Positions 42,270-62,855 of a DNA stretch of 64,000 nt are shown piece after piece. Made by a program: the position numbers and the translations under genes. Position 1 is the first letter of the stretch; every line of letters starts with the position of its first letter. Source of the DNA: Tenacibaculum sp. MAR_2009_124 (GTDB lineage Bacteria > Bacteroidota > Bacteroidia > Flavobacteriales > Flavobacteriaceae); contig NZ_FNSF01000001.1 of the NCBI RefSeq assembly GCF_900105455.1, forward strand, positions 1,307,001-1,371,000, in the 5' to 3' direction. The notes under the pieces are model-generated. The model was not told the origin of the DNA, ran no database searches, and saw nothing but the letters and a program-made list of their open reading frames with translations.

Positions 42270-43817
42270 ATGCGAAAAATTGATATTCTTTGGGTTGACG
42301 ATGAAATAGATTTACTAAAACCTCATATTTTATTTTTAGAAAAAAAAAATTACCAGGTAACTTCATGTACCAATGGTGCTGATGCCATAGATTTGGTAGG
42401 TGAACAAAATTTTGATATCGTTTTTCTTGATGAAAATATGCCTGGAATTACAGGTTTAGAAACGTTGTCTTCTATCAAACAAATTAATTCAAATCTTCCA
42501 GTTGTTATGATTACAAAAAGTGAGGAAGAATATATTATGGAAGAAGCCATTGGATCTAAAATTGCAGATTATTTAATAAAACCTGTGAATCCTAATCAAA
42601 TACTATTAAGTTTAAAAAAGAATCTCGATCATTCAAGATTAATCTCTGAAAAAACAACCTCTAATTATCAACAAGAATTTAGAAAAATAGCCATGGACTT
42701 AGCTATGGTTAATTCTTATGAAGATTGGATTGACATGTATAAAAAACTTGTTCATTGGGAATTAGAACTTGAAGATATTGATGATAGCGGTATGTTAGAG
42801 ATTTTGAAATCTCAAAAAACAGAAGCGAATACACAGTTTTTTAAATTTATTAAGAAAAATTATCAAAATTGGCTAAACGGTGATGATAGCCCTACTTTTT
42901 CGCATACTTTATTTAAAGATTATGTGGTTCCTAACCTTTCAAGTGATCAAGGTGTTTTGTTAGTCGTTATTGACAACCTGCGTTACGACCAATATAGAAT
43001 TCTAGAACCTTTTATCAATAACTATTATAAAAAGGAAGAAGAAAACTCGTACTTCAGTATATTACCAACGGCGACTCAGTATGCTAGAAATGCATTATTC
43101 TCTGGTTTAATGCCTTCGGAAATGGAAAAAAGGTATCCGCAGTATTGGAAAAATGATACTGATGAAGGTGGAAAAAATTTATTTGAAGCAGAGTTTTTAG
43201 AATCTCAAATAAAAAGACTAGGATTAAATATTAAGCATAGTTTTCATAAAATAACAACTTTAAAAGCCGGTAAAGATCTTGCCGATAATTATAACACCAC
43301 AAAACAAAATGATCTAACGGTTATTGTTTATAATTTTGTAGATATGCTATCTCATGCCAAAACGGAGATGGAAGTTATTAAAGAATTGGCTGGAGACGAC
43401 AAGGCTTATAGATCATTGACAGTAAGCTGGTTTAAAAACTCTCCTTTGTTTGAAATGATTCAGAAAGCCCAAAAACTTGGTCAAAAACTGATCATCACAA
43501 CAGATCATGGAACTATTAACTGTAAAACGCCAACAAAAGTAATTGGAGATAAAAACATAAGCTCTAACTTACGTTATAAAACAGGTAGAAGTTTATCATA
43601 TGAAAATAAAGATGTGTTTGCCGTTAAAAATCCTAAAGATATATTTTTACCTGCGGTAGCTATTAATAGCCCTTTTATTTTTACAAAAGAAGATTTATTC
43701 TTTGCCTATCCAAATAACTACAATCACTTTGTCAAATACTATAAAAACACTTATCAGCACGGAGGAGTATCGTTAGAAGAAATTATTATTCCTTGTAGTA
43801 TTTATTCACCTAAGTAA
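42270..43817 (+). CDS. porX: PorX: response regulator with PglZ/alkaline-phosphatase-like effector
   Basis: A 515-residue two-domain regulator. Residues 1-about 120 are a CheY-like receiver (ILWVDDE, phospho-acceptor Asp54 in VFLDENMPG, switch Thr in VMITKSEE, Lys in YLIKP). After a helical linker, residues about 200-515 form a PglZ/alkaline-phosphatase superfamily domain (VLLVVIDNLRYDQ, ILPTATQYARNALFSG, IITTDHGT, HGGVSLEEIIIP). This is the architecture of PorX, which controls T9SS genes in Porphyromonas and flavobacteria. Two T9SS cargo proteins occur earlier in the window. The partner kinase PorY is not here. Confidence 0.93.
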   Translation: MRKIDILWVDDEIDLLKPHILFLEKKNYQVTSCTNGADAIDLVGEQNFDIVFLDENMPGITGLETLSSIKQINSNLPVVMITKSEEEYIMEEAIGSKIADYLIKPVNPNQILLSLKKNLDHSRLISEKTTSNYQQEFRKIAMDLAMVNSYEDWIDMYKKLVHWELELEDIDDSGMLEILKSQKTEANTQFFKFIKKNYQNWLNGDDSPTFSHTLFKDYVVPNLSSDQGVLLVVIDNLRYDQYRILEPFINNYYKKEEENSYFSILPTATQYARNALFSGLMPSEMEKRYPQYWKNDTDEGGKNLFEAEFLESQIKRLGLNIKHSFHKITTLKAGKDLADNYNTTKQNDLTVIVYNFVDMLSHAKTEMEVIKELAGDDKAYRSLTVSWFKNSPLFEMIQKAQKLGQKLIITTDHGTINCKTPTKVIGDKNISSNLRYKTGRSLSYENKDVFAVKNPKDIFLPAVAINSPFIFTKEDLFFAYPNNYNHFVKYYKNTYQHGGVSLEEIIIPCSIYSPK

Positions 43818-46118: not shown

Positions 46119-46850
46119 TTAGAAAGGTATAAAGGCAGACACTTTGTAAAACTCATCACTTTGCGATACATCTGTATTTAATACTGATCCTCCCGACATT
46201 CTGAAAACAATTCCATTATCAAGCTTTAGCTTTAACGATCCTCCTAACCATTGATATATTTGAAGGTTTTCAGCTCCCTCGTTTCTTGTTATATCCAAAG
46301 TTTCATAAAATGCTCCTACTACTACGCGATCACTCACCTTAATTCCAGGTGCTAACCAATTTAAAACGTAATCTTTTGTCAAAATATTTGCATTATCTCT
46401 TATGGATTTATAATACGCTATATATCCTTCAAAATCTATAATAGAATCACCATAATTTACGTAAAGACTAGGTATAATTCCTTCACCTAACCTAGTTCCT
46501 GTACTATTTGATAAAAACTTACCACTGGCAAATCCGATAGACGGATTTAAGTATAACTTATCATTAAATGCTTTGAATCCAATACCTGCAGCTACTTCCA
46601 ATAAAAGGTCACTTCCAGAATTTAAATTCCCAAAAGCTCCATTTGTCCAAAAAATGCTATACATGGTAATATCAAACTTTTTGTTGGTTTCAAAGTTTGC
46701 GAAAAATATTGGGTAAAACCCTGCTGCACTGTTATGAATAATTTTAGCGGCAAAACTAGTTTTATTCTTTTTCTCTTTTGTATTATCTTGAGAATATGCT
46801 ACACTTGTTATTAAAAATACTATTACTAAGGTTACGATTGATTTTTTCAT
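46119..46850 (-). CDS. Outer-membrane beta-barrel-like protein (resembles DUF6733)
   Basis: A 243-residue exported protein: signal peptide MKKSIVTLVIVFLITSVAYS, then alternating hydrophobic strands with aromatic residues (FDITMYSIFWTNGAFG, KLYLNPSIGFASGKFL, IIPSLYVNYGDSIIDFEGYI) and a terminal strand FYKVSAFIPF ending in Phe, typical of outer-membrane barrels. I think it resembles DUF6733, but am not certain. It begins 11 bases after the alpha/beta hydrolase stop and so is probably the last gene of the ligase/ACP/decarboxylase operon. It might help export or receive the product; that is speculation. Confidence 0.7.
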   Translation of the reverse strand: MKKSIVTLVIVFLITSVAYSQDNTKEKKNKTSFAAKIIHNSAAGFYPIFFANFETNKKFDITMYSIFWTNGAFGNLNSGSDLLLEVAAGIGFKAFNDKLYLNPSIGFASGKFLSNSTGTRLGEGIIPSLYVNYGDSIIDFEGYIAYYKSIRDNANILTKDYVLNWLAPGIKVSDRVVVGAFYETLDITRNEGAENLQIYQWLGGSLKLKLDNGIVFRMSGGSVLNTDVSQSDEFYKVSAFIPF

Positions 46851-46861
46851 AATTATAAGGT

Positions 46862-47740
46862 TTAGTTTAAAAATGAGTTGATTAATTCCGAAACATGTCC
46901 ATGTTCTTTTTCAAGATGTATATGATGTCCACCTTCAATCCATTGAATGTCGACGTTTCTAAAGTTTTCGATTCTTGAACTGAATAAGCCAGTAGAAAAG
47001 AGTCCTTGTTTACCTAAAATAATTCTAGTTTTACATGTAATTTTTTTGATAAACTGCACTACTTGCTCTTCGGTTATTCTATAATATTCTGGAAGAACAA
47101 CTTTAGGGTCATGTGACCATCTAAAGCCCCCTGACACTTTTTTTAGTCCGCGTTCAATAAGTATAGAAGCTGCTTTATATGAAATAGGGCTTATTCTATT
47201 ATCTACTCTATTTTGAATGGCTTCTTTTCTATTAATAAATGTTACCGAATCCTGTTTCGAAAAACCATACAATTGGGCTTTTTGTGCCATTTTAAATTGC
47301 TTATATGCCCTTGTGAAATTTGTTACGATTTCATTTTTATTATTAATAAATGGTGGCCCTAGCCCATCAATAAAAATTAATTTATTAATGCGATTTGGAA
47401 AAGCGCCAGAAACTAATGACGCAACCCCAGAACCAAGTGAGTGAGCAATTAATGTGCAGGTTTTCCACTGCAATGCATCTAGGCAATTAAGAACATCGAT
47501 AGCATGGTCCCATAAATAATAATTAGCATTTGTACTTCGATGATCAGAAATACCATGTCCAGCCAAATCAATAGCGATAACATAATGATCTTTAGAAAGT
47601 TCTGGAGCTATTTTATCAAAAGTATTTGCATTATCTAACCATCCATGAATAGCTAAAATTCGATTTGAGCAATTTGCATCTCCCCAACTCTTACCTCTAA
47701 AAGTAAAGTTGTTTACTTCAATTTCGATATAGTTACTCAT
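46862..47740 (-). CDS. Alpha/beta hydrolase, operon partner of the AMP-ligase
   Basis: A 292-residue cytoplasmic alpha/beta hydrolase. The fold markers are IHGWLDNANTFDKIAPEL (oxyanion), IDLAGHGISDH, nucleophile Ser in IAHSLGSGVA, and the likely catalytic His in EGGHHIHLEK. It starts one base after the ligase stop, so expression is coupled. In carrier-protein pathways such hydrolases act as type II thioesterases or release enzymes, a plausible role here. Generic esterase activity cannot be ruled out. Confidence 0.85.
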   Translation of the reverse strand: MSNYIEIEVNNFTFRGKSWGDANCSNRILAIHGWLDNANTFDKIAPELSKDHYVIAIDLAGHGISDHRSTNANYYLWDHAIDVLNCLDALQWKTCTLIAHSLGSGVASLVSGAFPNRINKLIFIDGLGPPFINNKNEIVTNFTRAYKQFKMAQKAQLYGFSKQDSVTFINRKEAIQNRVDNRISPISYKAASILIERGLKKVSGGFRWSHDPKVVLPEYYRITEEQVVQFIKKITCKTRIILGKQGLFSTGLFSSRIENFRNVDIQWIEGGHHIHLEKEHGHVSELINSFLN

Positions 47741-47741
47741 A

Positions 47742-49328
47742 TCACGAAATTTTCACTTTTCCTTCCATTTGCTCAACTTCGCTCAAGGCTCTTTCTTTTA
47801 AACCTATAAGATCGAATTTTCCGTTAATGGTTTTCGGCAAACTTGATATAATTGAAATATATTCTGGAACTTTGAATGCTTCAAGGTTATTTTTACATAT
47901 ACCTTTTATATGGTCTTCACTTATCTCCATTCCATCTTTCAGAACAACGAATGCATATAAAACATCACCATAACTACTATGAGGCACTCCTACGATAGCT
48001 ACAGAATTTACCTCCTCAATAGTTCCTATAAAATCTTCAACCTCTTTTGGACTCACTTTTATCCCTCTAGATTTTATGATATGATCCATTCTACCTTTAA
48101 AGTACAAATACCCATCTTCATCTAAAGAGCAGTAATCTCCAGTATATAAAACTTTTTCCCCCATAATAGGGCCGTCTTTTAATTTTTCCGCAGTCTTTTC
48201 AGGTTTATTCCAATACCCTCTCATCACTGTTGCTCCTCTAATTACGAGCTGGCCGATAGTATTTGCTTCTTCAATTTTATGGTCATTTTCATCAACTAAC
48301 CACAATTCAGTATTAGGAATGGCTATCCCCACACTATTTAGCTTTTTATCAATATCTTCTGGTGGTAAATACGTACACCTTTTGCACTCTGTAAGTCCAT
48401 ACATTGAGAAAATTTCTGCATTTTCAAAAATATGTTGCACCATTTTTATATTGGTTCTAGTAAGTGCTGCACCAGTATTGGTTACTTTACGAATACTTGA
48501 TAAATTGAACTTTTTATTTTTGTCCTGATCATGTAGTAACGTTACCAAAGTAGGAACTGCCGGAAGAATTGTAGCTTTTTCTTTCTCAATTTTTTTCAAT
48601 AAGAAAATAGGCCAGGTAGATTCTTTTTCAAGAAGAAGATTGGCTCCAGTGGATATTGACATAATCATTTGATACAAACCATAATCAAAAGACAGTGGCA
48701 ATACACATAACACTTTATCATTACTATTGTATCCTAAATACGTATTTAATGAATGCGTTGCTGTGATCATATTTTGATGAGTTAGCATAACCCCTTTCGG
48801 TTCTCCTGTTGAACCAGAAGTATATATAATTGATGCCAAATCAACACTTAAATTACCTACAGGGTTAAAGCTTTTGCTTGCATTTGAAATTGCAGACTCA
48901 AATCCTTCAACAAAATTACTTCTTAGGCTTTCAGGCAATTTCGGTACGATTACTTTTTCCAAACTACCATTCCCTAGTAATTCTAAATTTTCTTCTAGAA
49001 TAATCTGATTCGTAAACAGAACTTTAGCTTGAGAGTCATTAATAATATAGTCTATTTTATCGGGTTTTAACTCTGCACTTAAAGGAATAACAATTGCTCC
49101 TGCTTTTAAAATACTCCAAAACGAAATTACCGTTTCTATTGTATTTCCAAATAGTATAATTATTCTATCCCCTCTTTTGACTCCAATACTTTGTAAGTAT
49201 GCTGTCAGTTGATTCGATTTCTCTTCAATGTCTTTAAAAGTGAACTTAGTGTCACCATAAGTTACTGCTGTTTTATTAGGTAAATTCGCAGCACTACGAT
49301 CTAATAATTGGTATAACTGTGTTATCAT
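47742..49328 (-). CDS. AMP-forming acyl/aminoacyl ligase (ANL superfamily)
   Basis: A 528-residue adenylate-forming enzyme that activates a carboxylic or amino acid and probably loads it on the nearby acyl carrier protein. Core motifs: A3 YTSGSTGEPKGVMLTH (preceded by SII), A5 MYGLTECKRCTYLPPEDI, A7 YTGDYCSLDEDGYLYFKGR and A10 PKTINGKFD with the catalytic Lys. The TEC..TYLPPE segment recalls ligases associated with exosortase A loci and prolyl-AMP-type ligases. The frame opens at a GTG 30 bases upstream; the ATG at 49328 is preferred because MITQLYQLLDRSA matches the family start. A 347-base gap separates it from the ACP gene. Confidence 0.88.
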   Translation of the reverse strand: MITQLYQLLDRSAANLPNKTAVTYGDTKFTFKDIEEKSNQLTAYLQSIGVKRGDRIIILFGNTIETVISFWSILKAGAIVIPLSAELKPDKIDYIINDSQAKVLFTNQIILEENLELLGNGSLEKVIVPKLPESLRSNFVEGFESAISNASKSFNPVGNLSVDLASIIYTSGSTGEPKGVMLTHQNMITATHSLNTYLGYNSNDKVLCVLPLSFDYGLYQMIMSISTGANLLLEKESTWPIFLLKKIEKEKATILPAVPTLVTLLHDQDKNKKFNLSSIRKVTNTGAALTRTNIKMVQHIFENAEIFSMYGLTECKRCTYLPPEDIDKKLNSVGIAIPNTELWLVDENDHKIEEANTIGQLVIRGATVMRGYWNKPEKTAEKLKDGPIMGEKVLYTGDYCSLDEDGYLYFKGRMDHIIKSRGIKVSPKEVEDFIGTIEEVNSVAIVGVPHSSYGDVLYAFVVLKDGMEISEDHIKGICKNNLEAFKVPEYISIISSLPKTINGKFDLIGLKERALSEVEQMEGKVKIS

Positions 49329-49675
49329 TTGTATGCTTTTTACAAAGCACTTTTTCACTTCAAATTAGGCATAGATATCCCATGAACCTTTTTTGATAAA
49401 AGATTTTATGATACTAACAAGGCAATAATATCCCTGCTCTACCATTTATGATTTCAAATTACTGTAAAAGAAAATCTTTGTTTTTTATTCCTTATACACC
49501 TTATAAACAACCTTAGTTTATCTTTCTTTTTCTACTGAAGAAGAAATGAAAAAAAGGCATTTTAATGGGGTAATTTCAGATTGTAAATGGTATAGTATAT
49601 TGAACTCGTTTAAACGAATTCATTTAGTATTACACTAACTTAAAAGTGAAAAAGTGTTTTATTAATTAACCTTAT
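49329..49675. other. Gene-free gap within the ligase/ACP operon, with a palindrome
   Basis: No coding frame of note. At 49602-49621 there is a 20-base near-perfect palindrome centred on CGTTTAAACG (one G-T mismatch pair). The gap may hold a second promoter or an operator for the ligase half of the operon. Confidence 0.45.
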
Positions 49676-49951
49676 TTATTCAACTTCAGTAGTTACAAGA
49701 CTCAATGAACCCATTACATAATCATAAATAGTTTGTAATGTATTAAAATGTCTTGCTTCAATTGTATCTGGATTCACTTCGAATCCTTGAATATTATCTT
49801 CTAAATAAGTTAAAAAAAACATAGATGACAAAGAATCTATTCCTAGGTCATTCTTTAAGTGAGAATTTAACTTTATGGCATCATAGTTCAAGTTAGGAAT
49901 ACTATCCATTAAACCATCTTTAATTATATTTAGTATATCTGAATTACTCAT
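49676..49951 (-). CDS. Acyl carrier protein
   Basis: A 91-residue acidic four-helix carrier protein. The phosphopantetheine site is Ser40 in LGIDSLSS, the standard DSL motif. It is distinct from a housekeeping AcpP (longer tail, atypical helix II FFLTYLEDNIQGF) and lies 23 bases after the PLP decarboxylase gene. It probably carries the activated substrate for that decarboxylase. Confidence 0.92.
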   Translation of the reverse strand: MSNSDILNIIKDGLMDSIPNLNYDAIKLNSHLKNDLGIDSLSSMFFLTYLEDNIQGFEVNPDTIEARHFNTLQTIYDYVMGSLSLVTTEVE

Positions 49952-49974
49952 TTTTGCTTAGTTTTAATTGTATT

Positions 49975-51255
49975 TTATTTGTCTAATACTGGGGTTTGAA
50001 CATTGAAATTTACCAGAACCTGTCTCTCTATCATATCCTTAGGTTTATCTTTCTTTCTGATAAGGTGCATTTCATCGTTATAAACTAATATTTCAGCAGG
50101 AAACCCATGACTATGAAACAATCCTGGAGAAGAAGTAGGTCCATAGGCTCCTGATGATTTTACAACCAAAATATCAGAAACATTCACTTCTTTTAATTTT
50201 ATATTCCTACCTAAAATATCATCAGGACTACATAATGGCCCTGATACCTGGTATTCAAACTCTTTAGCGTCCACATCAGCAGAAATATTCTCCATTGGGA
50301 AGTTTCTCTTTACAACACGTCCTGAACCAGCAGCTGCTGAATGACAGTTGGTTCCCCCATCTGTAATAACAAAAGTTTTATTATGGTTTACTTTTATGTT
50401 ATTTACCTCCACAGCCAAATAACCAGCTGTTCCTAAGATAAATCGACCAGATTCCATAATAATTCTAGTTTCAGGGTATGTTGCATGAAATTCCTCAAAC
50501 AAAGGCTTCATCAAGTCTTCAAACTTCTGAATATCTAAAGGTGTTTGATTTGCGAAATAAGGAATTCCCATTCCACCTCCTACATCAACCATACTGAATT
50601 TCGTTCCGTATTTTTTAGTTATGGTATCATATAAATTCAAAATGTATCTGGTGTTTTGGAATACAGATTCTGCATCTAAAATACTCGTGCCATTGTATAC
50701 ATGTATCCCTCTAATGTTTATATTAGGTACCTGTAAATACGTTCCGAAATTTTCAACTGCGTGTTTTTCATCGATTCCAAATTGAGTAGGCCTTCCTCCC
50801 ATTTTCCATGGAGATCCATCTGCGGAAAAATCAGGGTTCAATCGAATCGCTACGTTTGCGGTAACTCCCATTTCCTTTGCTAAGTTTGAAACACGTTCTA
50901 ATTCTGTTTCAGACTCAATTACTAAAGCAAAAATGTTTAATTCTAACGCTCTTTTAAGTTCATATTCCTTTTTACAAGGACCTAAGAAGATAATATCTTC
51001 CGGTATAGATCCTGCTTTTAAGGCAATTTCCATTTCTGTTAATGAACACACTTCGGTACAAGCTCCCTTAGTTCTTAGTAAATGTACTAATGATACATTT
51101 GGGTTTACCTTAAGCGCGTAAAATACATCCACAAATTCAGGAAGAGCGTTCTTTAAACTTTTATAATTTTTGATAATTTGTTCACCATCGTAAAGGTATG
51201 ATGGCGTGCCATGCAGTCTTGCGGCTTTTAGAAGCCTTAAGTTATTTATATTCAT
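49975..51255 (-). CDS. PLP-dependent decarboxylase of the LysA/ornithine (fold III) family
   Basis: A 426-residue alanine-racemase-fold decarboxylase. Lys49 in VFYALKVNPN should bind PLP; other marks are GIHVYNGTSILDAES, DVGGGMGIPYF, the MESGRFILGTAG phosphate loop and the Cys-containing GPLCSPDDILG. Diaminopimelate decarboxylase (LysA) is the nearest well-known enzyme. The position next to an acyl carrier protein and an AMP-ligase recalls BtrK of butirosin synthesis (acting on an ACP-bound glutamate) and the decarboxylase of exosortase A loci. It is therefore likely to act on an ACP-bound or free amino acid in a specialised pathway rather than in lysine synthesis. Confidence 0.88.
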   Translation of the reverse strand: MNINNLRLLKAARLHGTPSYLYDGEQIIKNYKSLKNALPEFVDVFYALKVNPNVSLVHLLRTKGACTEVCSLTEMEIALKAGSIPEDIIFLGPCKKEYELKRALELNIFALVIESETELERVSNLAKEMGVTANVAIRLNPDFSADGSPWKMGGRPTQFGIDEKHAVENFGTYLQVPNINIRGIHVYNGTSILDAESVFQNTRYILNLYDTITKKYGTKFSMVDVGGGMGIPYFANQTPLDIQKFEDLMKPLFEEFHATYPETRIIMESGRFILGTAGYLAVEVNNIKVNHNKTFVITDGGTNCHSAAAGSGRVVKRNFPMENISADVDAKEFEYQVSGPLCSPDDILGRNIKLKEVNVSDILVVKSSGAYGPTSSPGLFHSHGFPAEILVYNDEMHLIRKKDKPKDMIERQVLVNFNVQTPVLDK

Positions 51256-51295
51256 AAAAGGGTTTTTAAATGAATTCTATTATTATAATATTTTC

Positions 51296-51841
51296 TTATT
51301 TGTCCGAGTTAAACATATCATACTCGATTAACCATTTGCCATTTTCTTTTTTCCAAAGGATGATATAAGACCCTTCAAAAATGTGCTCTTTTTGAGTGTT
51401 TACATATCCAAGCATATGACATCTTTGAAATGCTACATCCATATCACCAAAGAATTCTAATTCGTCCTGAAAAAATGCCACTCTGTCAACACCTTTAACA
51501 CTTTCTTTAAACTCTTTTTCGATATCAGCTCTACCCAATCTAGGCTTTTTACCTGGCTTCATGAATACAGCACCAACCGTTGTATATTCTTCAGAAATAC
51601 CTTTTGGATCTTTGTTTACCCACTTTGTTTCAAACCGTCTATCCGCTATGTCAATAAGTTTCGCATTTACTAACAGATCTTGTTTGGAAAATTGGTTTGA
51701 GCCATAATAGCTAACGACGGAATTTTTGTACTTAATCTCGATGTTTCTTAGTGATTTAGACTCTTTAAACGAATAAATCATGGTTCCGATTAGCACGGAT
51801 AAACCTACAAGGATAATGACTCTTGCTTTTTTTGTTTTCAT
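51296..51841 (-). CDS. Membrane-anchored NTF2/SnoaL-like protein
   Basis: A 181-residue protein with one N-terminal membrane segment (RVIILVGLSVLIGTMIYSF) and a soluble domain. That domain looks like an NTF2/SnoaL or DUF4440 cone: RRFETKWVNKDPKGISEEY, FMKPGKKPRLGRADIEKEFK, GSYIILWKKENGKWLIEYD. Such folds are often small enzymes or ligand binders. It starts the operon 40 bases before the decarboxylase. Function unknown. Confidence 0.72.
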   Translation of the reverse strand: MKTKKARVIILVGLSVLIGTMIYSFKESKSLRNIEIKYKNSVVSYYGSNQFSKQDLLVNAKLIDIADRRFETKWVNKDPKGISEEYTTVGAVFMKPGKKPRLGRADIEKEFKESVKGVDRVAFFQDELEFFGDMDVAFQRCHMLGYVNTQKEHIFEGSYIILWKKENGKWLIEYDMFNSDK

Positions 51842-52901: not shown

Positions 52902-53273
52902 ATGCAGTTACTAAAACGTTTTGGTTATTATTTTATCGGTGTGGCTCTTGGATCAATGGCTGTTCTCTACTTTTGGAAAAATAAAAAAGTAACATTCGAT
53001 TACGGAATGGATGCTAGAACATTAAAATCAATTCGAATAAAAAAGCGTATTTATTCGAATAACGCTAAAGAAGTATTACAATTAAAAAACATCGATACTT
53101 CTTATATAACTGCCGTCCTTACAAGAGGCGATGTCGACTTTTCTAAAAGCAAACCTAGGCAAAAACCTTGTGCTGAGTATTATATTACAGGAAAAGACAG
53201 CTTAGAGTCTATGAGTGTTTACGTGGTTCGTTGTGACTCTACAGCTACCATTAAAGATATATTTTTAAAGTAA
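52902..53273 (+). CDS. Small DUF4258-like membrane-anchored protein
   Basis: A 123-residue protein with one N-terminal membrane segment (RFGYYFIGVALGSMAVLYFW) and a soluble basic domain. I associate it with the flavobacterial DUF4258-type family from the RTLKSIRIKKRIYS and PCAEYYITG pattern, but no function is known. It is alone between long non-coding stretches and followed by a hairpin. Confidence 0.7.
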   Translation: MQLLKRFGYYFIGVALGSMAVLYFWKNKKVTFDYGMDARTLKSIRIKKRIYSNNAKEVLQLKNIDTSYITAVLTRGDVDFSKSKPRQKPCAEYYITGKDSLESMSVYVVRCDSTATIKDIFLK

Positions 53274-55940: not shown

Positions 55941-58138
55941 TTAATTTGCTATATCACTGGTAAATTTTATTCTCATTAATCGAAGTTCTTCATCATCATA
56001 GTCTCCGTCAAATTCATCCATTGCTTCTTGAATTTTATCGGTTTCAGCCTCCATGAAGTAATCATATATTTCTTCCTGCTGATCCTCATCAAACAAATCA
56101 TCTATAGCATAGTCTATGTTTAATTTCGTTCCAGAAAACACAATTGCTTCCATTTCTTTTATCAGCTCTGACATTTGAAGCCCTTTTGAACTTGCTATAT
56201 CTTCTAAGGGAAGTTTTCTATCAGTATTCTGAATAATATATAATTTCAATCCAGAATTAACTCCAGTACTCTTCACAATTAGGTCGTCAGGACGAACAAT
56301 TTCATTTTCATCTACATAAGCTAAAATTAACTTTATAAAGTCATTCCCATATTTTTTAGCTTTCCCCTCACCTACTCCATGAACTTTTGATAACTCTTCC
56401 AGTGATATTGGATATTTTAAAGCCATATCATCAATAGAAGGATCTTGAAAAACAGCAAAAGGAGGTACTCCCAACTTTTTACCTACTTTTTTTCTTAGAT
56501 CTTTTAACATTGCTACCAATTTGGCATCAACACCGCCTCTAGAAGATTTTGTATTCGTTATAATCGTACCATCATCATCGGTTGCATATACATGATTTTC
56601 TGTCATTAAGAAAGAAGAAGGATTCTTTATAAACTCTTTTCCTTCTTTCGTTATTTTCAATACACCGTATTGTTCAATTTCCTTTCTAATAAAATCAGTT
56701 ACTAATACTTGGCGTATTAAGGCATTCCAATAATGTACATCCTTATCTTTCCCTATTCCAAAGAAAGGCTGAGAAGGTGTTTTGTGCGATTTTAATAAAG
56801 CGTTTTCGTTACCAATTATAGTATTTACTACTTCTTTTGGTTTATACATTTCATTAGTATCAACGATCACAGATAATAGTTTGACAACTTCATCTTGCGC
56901 TTCCGATCTTTTCTTTGGGTTACGCATATTATCATCCATATCCGCTCCTTCCCCTTTTACTTCATCAAATTCTTCTCCAAAATAATGAAGTAAATACTTT
57001 CTTCTATTCATGGACGTTTCCGCATAACCAACAACTTCTTGCAGTAATGCATGTCCCACTTCCTGTTCGGCAACGGGCTTATTCGCCATGAATTTCTCTA
57101 ATTTTTCAATATCTTTATATGAGTAGAAAGTTAAACAGTAACCTTCTCCTCCATCTCTTCCAGCTCTTCCTGTTTCTTGATAATAACTTTCTAAACTTTT
57201 TGGAATATCATGATGTATAACAAATCGAACATCGGGTTTATCTATTCCCATACCAAAAGCAATGGTAGCTACTACAACATCACAATCTTCCATTAAGAAC
57301 ATGTCTTGATGTTTTGCTCTTGTTTTTGCATCTAAACCTGCATGATATGGAACCGCATTAACACCATTTACCTGAAGTACTTGGGCTATTTCTTCCACCT
57401 TTTTTCTACTCAAACAGTAGATAATTCCAGATTTGTTGGTGTGCTGTTTTATAAATTTTATAATATCTTTTTCAATATCTTTCGTCTTTGGCCTCACTTC
57501 ATAAAATAAGTTAGGTCTATTAAACGAAGCTTTAAAGACACTCGCATCAGACATTCCTAAGGTTTTCAGAATATCTTCCTGAACCTTTTCAGTTGCTGTT
57601 GCTGTTAATCCGATAATGGGAACATTATCTATTTGTTTTATAATACTTCTTAAATTTCTATACTCAGGTCTGAAATCATGCCCCCATTCCGAAATACAAT
57701 GCGCTTCGTCAATGGCTACAAAAGAGATTTTTTGAGCTCTTAAAAACTCTACATATTCCTCTTTAATTAATGATTCAGGTGCTACATATAGCAATTTTGT
57801 GATACCGTTTTCAATGTCCGTTTTTACTTGATTTACTTCCGTTTTATTTAACGAAGAGTTTAGCACATGCGCAATACCATGATTCTCAGATATACCTCTT
57901 ATGGCATCTACCTGATTCTTCATCAAAGCTATCAAAGGAGAAATCACAATAGCGGTTCCCTCTTTCATAAGCGCTGGCAATTGATAACAAAGTGATTTTC
58001 CGCCCCCGTTGGCATTATCACAAAAGTATTTTTGTTATTTAAGATGTTATTCACAACACCTTCTTGTAAACCTTTGAATTTACTGAATCCAAAAATTTTC
58101 TTTAACGATTTATACAAATCCGACTGCTCTATATCCAT
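55941..58138 (-). pseudogene. recQ: RecQ DNA helicase with one-base deletion in Walker A
   Basis: A 3'-5' DNA helicase for recombination and repair. From 57980 the frame is intact: DEAHCISEWGHDFRPEY box, SF2 motifs with QETGRAGRDGG, zinc/RQC region and an HRDC domain near 500-575. The true start is upstream: ATG 58138 gives MDIEQSDLYKSLKKIFGFSK and continues to VIMPTG. There the frame breaks in a C5 run (58003-58007); one extra C would give MPTGGGKSLCYQLPALM and a 732-residue protein of normal length. Without it the product stops early or starts at 57980 without a P-loop, and so could not use ATP. Homopolymer sequencing error is the main alternative. Confidence 0.85.
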
Positions 58139-61466: not shown

Positions 61467-61611
61467 GGAAACTTTTACGGTTCCCTTACATCTCCTCTAT
61501 TCAATTTATTGTTTTTTCTCTTTAAACATAGATAATTGATCCCTGATAATTGATAATTGAATTCCTGTACGTCTCTGATATAAGTTGACCACTTTAAAAA
61601 AGAGATTATCA

Positions 61612-62004
61612 ATGAAAGCAAATTTAAGACGGATTCAAAAGCAACGGACTTACAGTGATGAATTTAAGAAACAACTTGTTTCGGAATTTGAATCGGGTAA
61701 GTATAGTGTACTAGAATTGGATCAACTTTATGGGGTTAGTTATCAATCGATTTACAATTGGATTTATAAATTTTCTATCTTTAACAAAAAAGGATATCGT
61801 ATAGTGGAACATCAATTAAGCGGTCAAAAGAAAGTAAAAGAGTTAGAAGCTAAAATTAAGAATTTAGAAGCCTCGCTAGGTCGTAAACAGATTATGATTG
61901 ATTATTTAGAGGCAATGATGGAAGTCGCTAAGGAAGAACTCGATATCGATATCAAAAAAAACTACGCCACCCCACCATCCAAAGGTTTGTCAAAAAAGAA
62001 GTAG
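61612..62004 (+). CDS. IS3-family transposase OrfA
   Basis: A 130-residue DNA-binding subunit. The N-terminal helix-turn-helix (YSDEFKKQLVSEFESGKYSV, GVSYQSIYNWIYKF) is followed by a leucine-rich coiled coil (KVKELEAKIKNLEASLGRKQ). I start at the ATG at 61612; the frame opens at a TTG 27 bases earlier within the terminal repeat. Its end contains the A6G slip site leading into orfB. Confidence 0.92.
   Translation: MKANLRRIQKQRTYSDEFKKQLVSEFESGKYSVLELDQLYGVSYQSIYNWIYKFSIFNKKGYRIVEHQLSGQKKVKELEAKIKNLEASLGRKQIMIDYLEAMMEVAKEELDIDIKKNYATPPSKGLSKKK
61992..61998 (+). promoter_or_regulatory. Programmed -1 frameshift site between orfA and orfB
   Basis: The heptamer AAAAAAG is exactly in the X XXY YYZ phase of orfA (codons AAA at 61993 and AAG at 61996). 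After a -1 slip the frame stays open through GAA GTA GGG into the orfB ATG at 62007, giving an OrfAB fusion transposase. This matches the known control of IS3 elements. Confidence 0.8.
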
Positions 62005-62006
62005 GG

Positions 62007-62855
62007 ATGACTTATAGTTTAAATAAATTATATAAAACTATAGGCATTAGTAAACAATCTGTTTATCAATATCAAAAGCGTCAAGAAGTTTTTGAGGATA
62101 AGCTTTTACAGTTGATCACTGAAGCAGATGTGTTGCGTAAAGAACATCCGGGTTGTGGGGTTGAGAAGATGTATTATAGTTTAGCTCCTGATTTTATAGG
62201 TAGAGATCGCTTTATTGAAATAATGATGAAGCTGGGATATCGTTTAAAGCGAAAGAAAAATTATAAGCGCACTACCATTGCCAGTAAAATATATTATCCA
62301 AATTTGATTAAAGGGATAACGGTAAGTGCTCCCAATATAATCTGGCAAAGCGATATTACTTATATCTTAGTAGATGGTAAGTTTTATTATGCAGTCTTCA
62401 TTATTGACGTCTATAGTAAAGAAATAGTAGGCTATAGTATTGCAGACCATATCAGAGCTACTGCAAATGTAAAGGCTTTAAGGATGGCCTTAAAAATTCA
62501 TGGGCCACCAAGATTTCATCATTCTGATAGGGGTAGCCAATATATTTACAAAGAATATATCCAGATTCTAAAGGCTAACAATATACAGATTAGTATGGCT
62601 ACAAGCGCACAAGATAATGCCTATGCAGAACGTATAAATAGAACTATTAAAGAAGAATACTTGGATCATTGGAAACCTAAAAACTTTTTTCAGTTAAAGC
62701 AAATGACGAAAAAAGCTATTAAGAATTACAATGAAAAAAGGATCCATAACAGCATAGATAGAAAAAGACCATCTATGTTTAGAGCAAATTTTTCTTTGTT
62801 GACTAGTCAACAAAGAAAATCAATTACTATTTTTAACAATGAAGTATTAACCTAA
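62007..62855 (+). CDS. IS3-family transposase OrfB (DDE integrase core)
   Basis: A 282-residue catalytic subunit. After an HTH_21-like region (HPGCGVEKMYYSLAPD), the rve integrase core has the DDE residues in WQSDITYI, HHSDRGSQY and NAYAERINRTIKEEYL. The C-terminus has YNEKRIHNSIDRKRPSMF. The length is full. It is in the -1 frame relative to orfA and is probably made mainly as an OrfAB fusion. Confidence 0.95.
   Translation: MTYSLNKLYKTIGISKQSVYQYQKRQEVFEDKLLQLITEADVLRKEHPGCGVEKMYYSLAPDFIGRDRFIEIMMKLGYRLKRKKNYKRTTIASKIYYPNLIKGITVSAPNIIWQSDITYILVDGKFYYAVFIIDVYSKEIVGYSIADHIRATANVKALRMALKIHGPPRFHHSDRGSQYIYKEYIQILKANNIQISMATSAQDNAYAERINRTIKEEYLDHWKPKNFFQLKQMTKKAIKNYNEKRIHNSIDRKRPSMFRANFSLLTSQQRKSITIFNNEVLT

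What the first reader, a model, noticed from the sequence alone, without database searches (positions are those of the whole stretch)
46119..51841. Compact operon for carrier-bound amino acid activation and decarboxylation
Six minus-strand genes are ordered as NTF2-like membrane protein, LysA-fold PLP decarboxylase, acyl carrier protein, AMP-forming ligase, alpha/beta hydrolase and beta-barrel-like protein. The ligase, carrier, fold III decarboxylase and hydrolase combination is known from exosortase A loci, and the carrier plus fold III decarboxylase logic from butirosin (BtrI/BtrK). No exosortase or glycan genes are nearby, and the operon includes an envelope protein at each end. Inference: an amino acid is adenylated, loaded on the ACP, decarboxylated and released or passed on as an amine building block. 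The product is unknown, and a flavobacterial version of this kind may be undescribed.
Basis: partly seen in the sequence, partly recalled or inferred. Interest (0 to 1): 0.72.

Follow-up and report, generated by a model that had tools for sequence, protein, structure and literature searches.

The report
Flavobacterial carrier-bound amino acid decarboxylation operon
Six genes found side by side in the same order in several marine flavobacteria encode enzymes predicted to hook aspartate (or a close relative) by its side chain onto a small carrier protein and likely cut off its other acid group there, next to two envelope-type proteins that would handle or export the still unknown product.

Summary
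Six intact ORFs lie at 46119-51841; the same six, in order, occur in L001-L005 (Tenacibaculum, Aquimarina, two other Flavobacteriaceae) at four different sites. The decarboxylase is not the lysine enzyme: a separate lysA exists, BtrK is the nearest solved relative and the active-site motifs are BtrK-like. In 32 of 120 listed relatives an ACP is fused to the decarboxylase, which points to a carrier-bound substrate. The ligase's pocket region is nearest VinN and reads D/Y/T/K/R against VinN's D/F/S/K/R. VinN loads 3-methylaspartate, and weakly aspartate, by the side-chain carboxyl, so the sharper prediction is aspartyl-ACP to beta-alanyl-ACP. The genome has no exosortase or glutamate-mutase match. 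One genome with the full cassette has no NRPS condensation domain; all six cassette genomes checked have panD. The substrate, the order of steps, the end product and the roles of hydrolase, NTF2-like protein and barrel are inferred; nothing was assayed. New variant of a known kind.

The parts
51296..51841 (-). NTF2-like (DUF4440) protein with N-terminal helix; first gene of the cassette, predicted membrane-anchored outside the cytoplasm
   Evidence: Pfam DUF4440 33.6 bits, cut-off 25.2; model pLDDT 90.4 with helix 4-26 then an NTF2-like fold, best Foldseek match a putative ketosteroid isomerase; many invariant polar residues in 16 aligned sequences
49975..51255 (-). fold-III PLP decarboxylase of BtrK type, predicted to act on an aminoacyl-ACP
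   Evidence: BtrK 274.4 bits against 189.3 for the best DAP decarboxylase; ESGR, GPLCSPDD and SGAYG motifs of the BtrK side, not of LysA
49676..49951 (-). stand-alone acyl carrier protein with serine in GIDSLSS
   Evidence: PP-binding 23.6 bits, cut-off 20.8; 47-60% identical over 54-76 residues to the C-terminal ACP of four fused decarboxylases compared
47742..49328 (-). AMP-forming aminoacyl ligase of VinN type
   Evidence: AMP-binding 290.3 bits; pocket region nearest VinN among solved structures; pocket D/Y/T/K/R in 6 of 6 cassettes
46862..47740 (-). alpha/beta hydrolase with likely intact Ser-Asp-His triad; thioesterase or acyl transferase, predicted
   Evidence: Abhydrolase_1 79 bits; S101, D125 and H272/H273 invariant in 9 of 9 aligned sequences; triad assignment from the motif, not from a structure
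46119..46850 (-). DUF6733 protein, predicted outer-membrane beta-barrel

Best explanation
The operon is a six-gene cassette predicted to load an aspartate-type amino acid by its side-chain carboxyl onto its own carrier protein and likely decarboxylate it there, giving a beta-alanyl-type group that would be passed on by the hydrolase-fold protein and handled at the cell envelope. Shown: the six genes, their families and their conserved linkage. Inferred: (1) the VinN-type ligase adenylates the side-chain carboxyl of L-Asp (less likely 3-substituted Asp or Glu) and loads the holo-ACP, from pocket residues; (2) the BtrK/VinO-type decarboxylase removes the free alpha-carboxyl from the ACP-bound residue, from motifs, tree and ACP fusions; (3) the alpha/beta hydrolase releases the group or transfers it to an acceptor, the weakest enzymatic step; (4) the membrane-anchored NTF2-like protein and the DUF6733 barrel modify, bind or move the product across the envelope, from fold and linkage only.
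For: Cassette: six of six genes, same order, in window and L001-L005. By a proxy (same longest-contig length), 42 of the 53 closest decarboxylases, the window's own included, lie with a listed NTF2-like or hydrolase relative (80 of 80 NTF2 rows and 34 of 41 hydrolase rows were given). Not LysA: separate lysA; BtrK nearest; 25 of 25 BtrK-side rows carry LC.P.D where 9 of 9 LysA-side rows carry CE. On-carrier step: 32 of 120 listed relatives, of 804 found, have PF00550 as well as the decarboxylase domains. Ligase: VinN 94.2 bits in the pocket region, next kind 51.4; the positions named in PMC11253843, mapped by motif, are D/Y/T/K/R in 6 of 6 cassettes while a control ligase from a sister genome reads D/M/V/T/I. 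VinN loads VinL before VinO decarboxylates, and FlvN uses Asp (PMC11284099). No glutamate mutase match in the genome, which favours Asp over 3-methyl-Asp.
Against: No activity was measured. The decarboxylase just passes the lysA model cut-off (298.2 against 297.9). IdnL3, a PLP decarboxylase of a related pathway, decarboxylates the free amino acid before loading, so the order could be reversed. VinN itself takes L-Asp with low efficiency, and two of five pocket residues differ from VinN, conservatively. The glutamate mutase control rang in only 1 of 14 genomes and below cut-off. All six cassette genomes checked have panD, so free beta-alanine would be redundant. No acceptor or second ligase is among the six genes. 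Over its full length the ligase scores higher with LgrA (323.2 bits in two stretches) than with VinN (249.4 in one). The barrel model is uneven (five models 77 to 37 pLDDT). In the tree BtrK is a long branch of unsure place.
Confidence: 0.58

Rival explanations
1. The residue is glutamate: gamma-glutamyl-ACP is decarboxylated to 4-aminobutyryl-ACP, as in the BtrI/BtrK route, and the product is a GABA-derived group.
For: BtrK is the nearest solved decarboxylase; one listed relative is named L-glutamyl-[BtrI acyl-carrier protein] decarboxylase (P0088).
Against: The ligase pocket follows VinN, which takes 3-methyl-Asp and, weakly, Asp; Phe-to-Tyr and Ser-to-Thr at two pocket positions leave doubt.
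Confidence: 0.2
2. The carrier-bound amine is a building block for NRPS lines elsewhere in the genome.
For: 60 condensation domains in this genome and 14 to 71 in four of five other cassette genomes.
Against: G549 (99% complete, complete cassette in L051) has none; no ORF over 905 aa lies in L001-L005 and none over 1032 aa in the window, so no NRPS stands beside the cassette.
Confidence: 0.12
3. It is a variant of the exosortase A-associated ligase/decarboxylase/ACP/hydrolase set, acting on an extracellular polymer or its building blocks.
For: The best NCBIfam models for ligase and decarboxylase are the exosortase A ones.
Against: Both below curated cut-off (415.6 of 592.35; 335.3 of 478.45); decarboxylases and ligases from Streptomyces, Rahnella and Rhizobium plasmids also score best with these models below cut-off, so the models catch the wider family; no exosortase in the genome; none of the 24 NCBIfam families matched by the hydrolase is named for exosortase (that such families exist in NCBIfam is recalled).
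Confidence: 0.08
4. The decarboxylase is a second diaminopimelate (lysine) decarboxylase and the neighbours are unrelated acyl metabolism.
For: Passes the lysA model by 0.3 bits; sources often name relatives diaminopimelate decarboxylase.
Against: Canonical lysA elsewhere, BtrK-side motifs and tree position, ACP fusions, conserved six-gene linkage.
Confidence: 0.03

Closest known systems
VinN / VinL / VinO (vicenistatin starter unit) and FlvN (fluvirucin B2)
   Same: Stand-alone VinN-type adenylation enzyme, stand-alone ACP and PLP decarboxylase acting after loading; matching pocket
   Different: No second ligase, dipeptidyl transferase or PKS among the six genes; an envelope-type protein at each end; marine Flavobacteriaceae, whereas mining for macrolactam clusters found 435 genomes, all Actinobacteria (PMC10662134, passages seen).
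BtrI / BtrK (butirosin side chain)
   Same: BtrK is the nearest solved decarboxylase, with the same motifs
   Different: Butirosin uses glutamate and another type of ligase (recalled)
Exosortase A-associated ligase and decarboxylase (TIGR03098, TIGR03099)
   Same: Best-scoring curated models for both enzymes
   Different: Below cut-off, no exosortase in the genome, hydrolase outside those families
ACP-decarboxylase fusions, named Pseudomonas or Acinetobacter where the source gave an organism
   Same: Decarboxylase 54-60% identical; fused ACP related to the cassette ACP
   Different: One polypeptide; their gene neighbourhood could not be read here

Membership tests
BtrK/VinO-type aminoacyl-ACP decarboxylase | Closer to BtrK than to DAP decarboxylases | tested here: met
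   274.4 against 189.3 bits; LysA-side rows set apart at 100/100, with a long-branch warning for BtrK
BtrK/VinO-type aminoacyl-ACP decarboxylase | LysA CE motif replaced by LC.P.D | tested here: met
   LC.P.D in 25 of 25 rows of the BtrK side, CE in 9 of 9 of the LysA side
BtrK/VinO-type aminoacyl-ACP decarboxylase | Works on ACP-bound substrate | not testable with these tools
   ACP fusions in 32 of 120 listed relatives are indirect support
VinN-type beta-amino acid adenylation enzyme | Pocket D230, F231, S299, K330, R331 and VinN's loop length | tested here: met
   D/Y/T/K/R, no gap against VinN in that loop; three identical, F to Y and S to T conservative
VinN-type beta-amino acid adenylation enzyme | Accepts Asp or 3-methyl-Asp by the side-chain carboxyl | not testable with these tools
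   needs a loading assay
Macrolactam beta-amino acid starter system | Second ligase, dipeptidyl transferase and type I PKS with the set | tested here: not met
   None among the six genes; no ORF over 905 aa in L001-L005 or over 1032 aa in the window; flanking ORFs were not all run through Pfam
Exosortase A-associated system | TIGR03098 and TIGR03099 over cut-off | tested here: not met
   415.6 of 592.35 and 335.3 of 478.45 bits
Exosortase A-associated system | Exosortase in the genome | tested here: not met
   PF09721, 0 matches in the 99.99% complete genome; control rings in 1 of 14
Diaminopimelate decarboxylase LysA | Over the lysA model cut-off | tested here: met
   298.2 of 297.9 bits, marginal; 4 of 7 BtrK-side relatives tested also pass, so the model does not separate the groups
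Diaminopimelate decarboxylase LysA | LysA-side motifs EPG[KR] and CE | tested here: not met
   ESGR and LCSPDD instead
DUF6733 (PF20507) | Over Pfam cut-off, full length | tested here: met
   289.5 of 27 bits, 1-243 of 243

The most novel reading that the evidence does not exclude
A dedicated beta-alanyl-carrier pathway, free of any polyketide or peptide assembly line, that decorates an envelope component or makes a small secreted compound in marine Bacteroidota, with DUF6733 as a family of small outer-membrane exporters for such adenylation products: at the same chromosomal site two sister genomes carry a DUF6733 gene beside a different, unrelated adenylation cassette.
Probability: 0.3. Interest if true: 0.75.

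Novelty: new variant of a known kind. Interest (0 to 1): 0.58.

Why it matters
Carrier-bound decarboxylation of amino acids is known from antibiotic pathways (vicenistatin, fluvirucin, butirosin). Here the same core stands with envelope-type proteins and no assembly line beside it, at several sites in marine Flavobacteriaceae, and its decarboxylase is often named diaminopimelate decarboxylase in databases. If right, it gives a directly testable substrate (Asp on a 91-residue ACP), a likely function for part of a misnamed decarboxylase group including the ACP fusions, and a first handle on DUF6733.

Tried and rejected
LysA reading rejected. Exosortase A membership rejected. NRPS supply as the general role rejected: G549 holds the full cassette but no condensation domain. 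A panD substitute is unlikely: panD in 6 of 6 cassette genomes checked. No Rfam match at gathering score in the window. The ACP-ligase gap shows no conserved block over six cassettes (mean column identity 41%, 15 invariant columns). DUF6733 does not mark the cassette: 8 of 395 order genomes at E up to 0.001, 4 over cut-off, the window's own included, and in the other three over cut-off the cassette is not beside it; the four weak ones (20.8-22.8 bits) have an unrelated neighbourhood. Plasmids: 268 records, all under 60% identity, best 44%; of four neighbourhoods fetched, three (Streptomyces, Rahnella, Rhizobium) hold a ligase, ACP and decarboxylase together, the fourth had no annotation. Rarity: close ligase (E up to 1e-80, best three candidates per genome scored) in 3 of 397 family genomes including the window's, the other two being the L002 and L003 genomes; close decarboxylase (E up to 1e-65) in 1 of 395 phylum genomes, the window's own; among 59 genomes, the window's included, 48 match but all others at 31% identity or less. 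Literature: searches; no listing showed a paper on this operon, and DUF6733 gave none. Seen: passages of PMC11253843 and PMC10662134, passages and section 5 of PMC11284099; the other papers only as listings. Only that library was searched.
Full report
The six ORFs named in the finding are present, intact and in the stated order. Pfam gives DUF4440, Orn/DAP/Arg decarboxylase, PP-binding ACP, AMP-binding ligase, Abhydrolase_1 and DUF6733, all over cut-off. The ligase most likely starts at the ATG 49328. The genome is 5.52 Mb, 99.99% complete, and the window is C8:1307001-1371000. Close named relatives with the decarboxylase are an uncultured Tenacibaculum (L001) and Tenacibaculum xiamenense, both 91% identical.

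The cassette is a real unit. All six genes in the same order occur in L001 (Tenacibaculum), L002 and L003 (Flavobacteriaceae), L004 and L005 (Aquimarina). L001 shares the window's flanks; L002, L003 and the Aquimarina pair have others, so four sites are seen, judged from flank ORFs without a close match to the window and from their N-termini. G549 and G597, found by the ligase search, are the genomes of L002 and L003. Spacing is tight except for the ACP-ligase gap, 165-421 bases and the widest in all six, and 169-288 bases before the decarboxylase in L003-L005. Within the genus the cassette lies between ald and the DUF4258 gene at 52902. Of 29 other same-genus loci held (the best of 56 other genomes with an ald match), 19 have these two genes 41-491 bp apart, 9 of them 41-45 bp; in 10 the second gene was not seen in the 1.2-1.5 kb held. 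In sampled genomes the unit is rare: 3 of 397 family genomes, 1 of 395 phylum genomes and 1 of 59 genomes, the window's own counted each time.

The decarboxylase. BtrK is the best solved relative (274.4 bits), ahead of any DAP decarboxylase (189.3). In a 34-row tree the 9 LysA-side rows stand apart at 100/100 from the 25 rows with the window and BtrK; the program warns that BtrK is a long branch, so its place is unsure. The motifs do not depend on the tree: E[SLA]GR and LC.P.D in 25 of 25, EPG[KR] and CE in 9 of 9. The genome has its own lysA at C8:881083-882270 with 370.7 bits. Against this, the window enzyme passes the lysA model by 0.3 bits, as do 4 of 7 BtrK-side relatives tested, so that model does not separate the groups. 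Of 804 relatives the best 120 are listed: 53 at 63-100% identity, and 32 further down with an ACP domain as well. In the five fusion proteins read (P0054, P0071, P0077, P0088, P0091) the ACP is C-terminal, and in the four compared it is 47-60% identical to the cassette ACP over 54-76 residues. Where the sources name an organism for a fusion, it is Pseudomonas or Acinetobacter, or a compost metagenome.

The ligase. In the pocket region VinN is the nearest solved structure (94.2 bits, next kind 51.4). Over the full length LgrA scores higher (323.2), as the sum of two stretches; VinN has 249.4 in one. The review PMC11253843 (passages) names D230, F231, S299, K330, R331 and a shortened loop as VinN's means of holding 3-methyl-Asp as a beta-amino acid. 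I placed these by motif in the printed chain, at a constant offset of 16. The window reads D, Y, T, K, R with no gap in the loop, as do 6 of 6 cassettes and a Streptomyces plasmid ligase; Rahnella and Rhizobium plasmid ligases read D, Y, T, H, R; the control ligase of a sister genome reads D, M, V, T, I. PMC11284099 (passages and section 5) states that VinN loads 3-methyl-Asp but not its decarboxylated form, takes L-Asp with low efficiency, that VinO then decarboxylates on VinL, and that FlvN uses Asp. The glutamate mutase family has no match in this genome (its control rings in 1 of 14, below cut-off), so Asp is the likelier substrate. IdnL3 decarboxylates before loading, which keeps the other order open.

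Where the product goes. No exosortase. The genome has 60 NRPS condensation domains, all between C8:31282 and 175176 or C4:61666 and 270065, far from the window, but G549 has the cassette and none. panD is present in this genome and in 5 of 5 other cassette genomes, so free beta-alanine for pantothenate is not the likely point. A conjugate made or exported at the envelope is the reading I commit to, as inference.

An unexpected comparison: G106 and G240, same genus, hold at the same site, between the ald and 52902 orthologues, a DUF6733 gene beside an enoyl-CoA hydratase, a 437-residue protein without Pfam match that reads as a membrane protein, and a different AMP ligase. DUF6733 therefore goes with two unlike adenylation cassettes at one site, which is why I suspect it is a transport partner. 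A third relative, in G235, has neither cassette beside it.

Novelty: the core chemistry is known; a stand-alone, envelope-linked form in Flavobacteriaceae showed up in none of my listed searches (Tried and rejected). I file it as a new variant of a known kind.

Noticed in passing
G000:C8:31282-175176 and C4:61666-270065 (outside the window): 60 NRPS condensation domains, with one open frame of 17,172 residues; the related L001 genome has 71. A very large NRPS load.
   Followed up: partly
L053:7963-15881 and L060:7489-15404: At the same chromosomal site two sister genomes carry lipocalin-like, DUF6733, enoyl-CoA hydratase, 437-residue protein, AMP ligase and a likely two-component pair instead of the cassette (Pfam run on L053 only).
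   Followed up: partly
window 55941-57980: RecQ helicase ORF starts at TTG with 679 residues while the 96% identical relative in L001 has 732; the N-terminal part of the DEAD domain is missing in this frame. Truncation or sequence error.
   Followed up: no
window 61585-62855: Transposase pair (HTH_Tnp_1 and rve).
   Followed up: no
window 42270-43817: Response regulator receiver fused to a PglZ domain.
   Followed up: no
L054:8941-18085 (Streptomyces plasmid): Decarboxylase, ligase and ACP of the same type stand beside ectoine genes and a cytochrome P450, suggesting another product of this logic.
   Followed up: no
P0126 (Shewanella sp. D64), P0125 with P0096: Relative of the cassette NTF2-like protein with the domain doubled; P0125 shares its contig length with decarboxylase P0096, so part of the cassette may reach Gammaproteobacteria.
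   Followed up: partly
window 49329-49675: Gap between ACP and ligase, 165-421 bases in all six cassettes, without a conserved block.
   Followed up: partly
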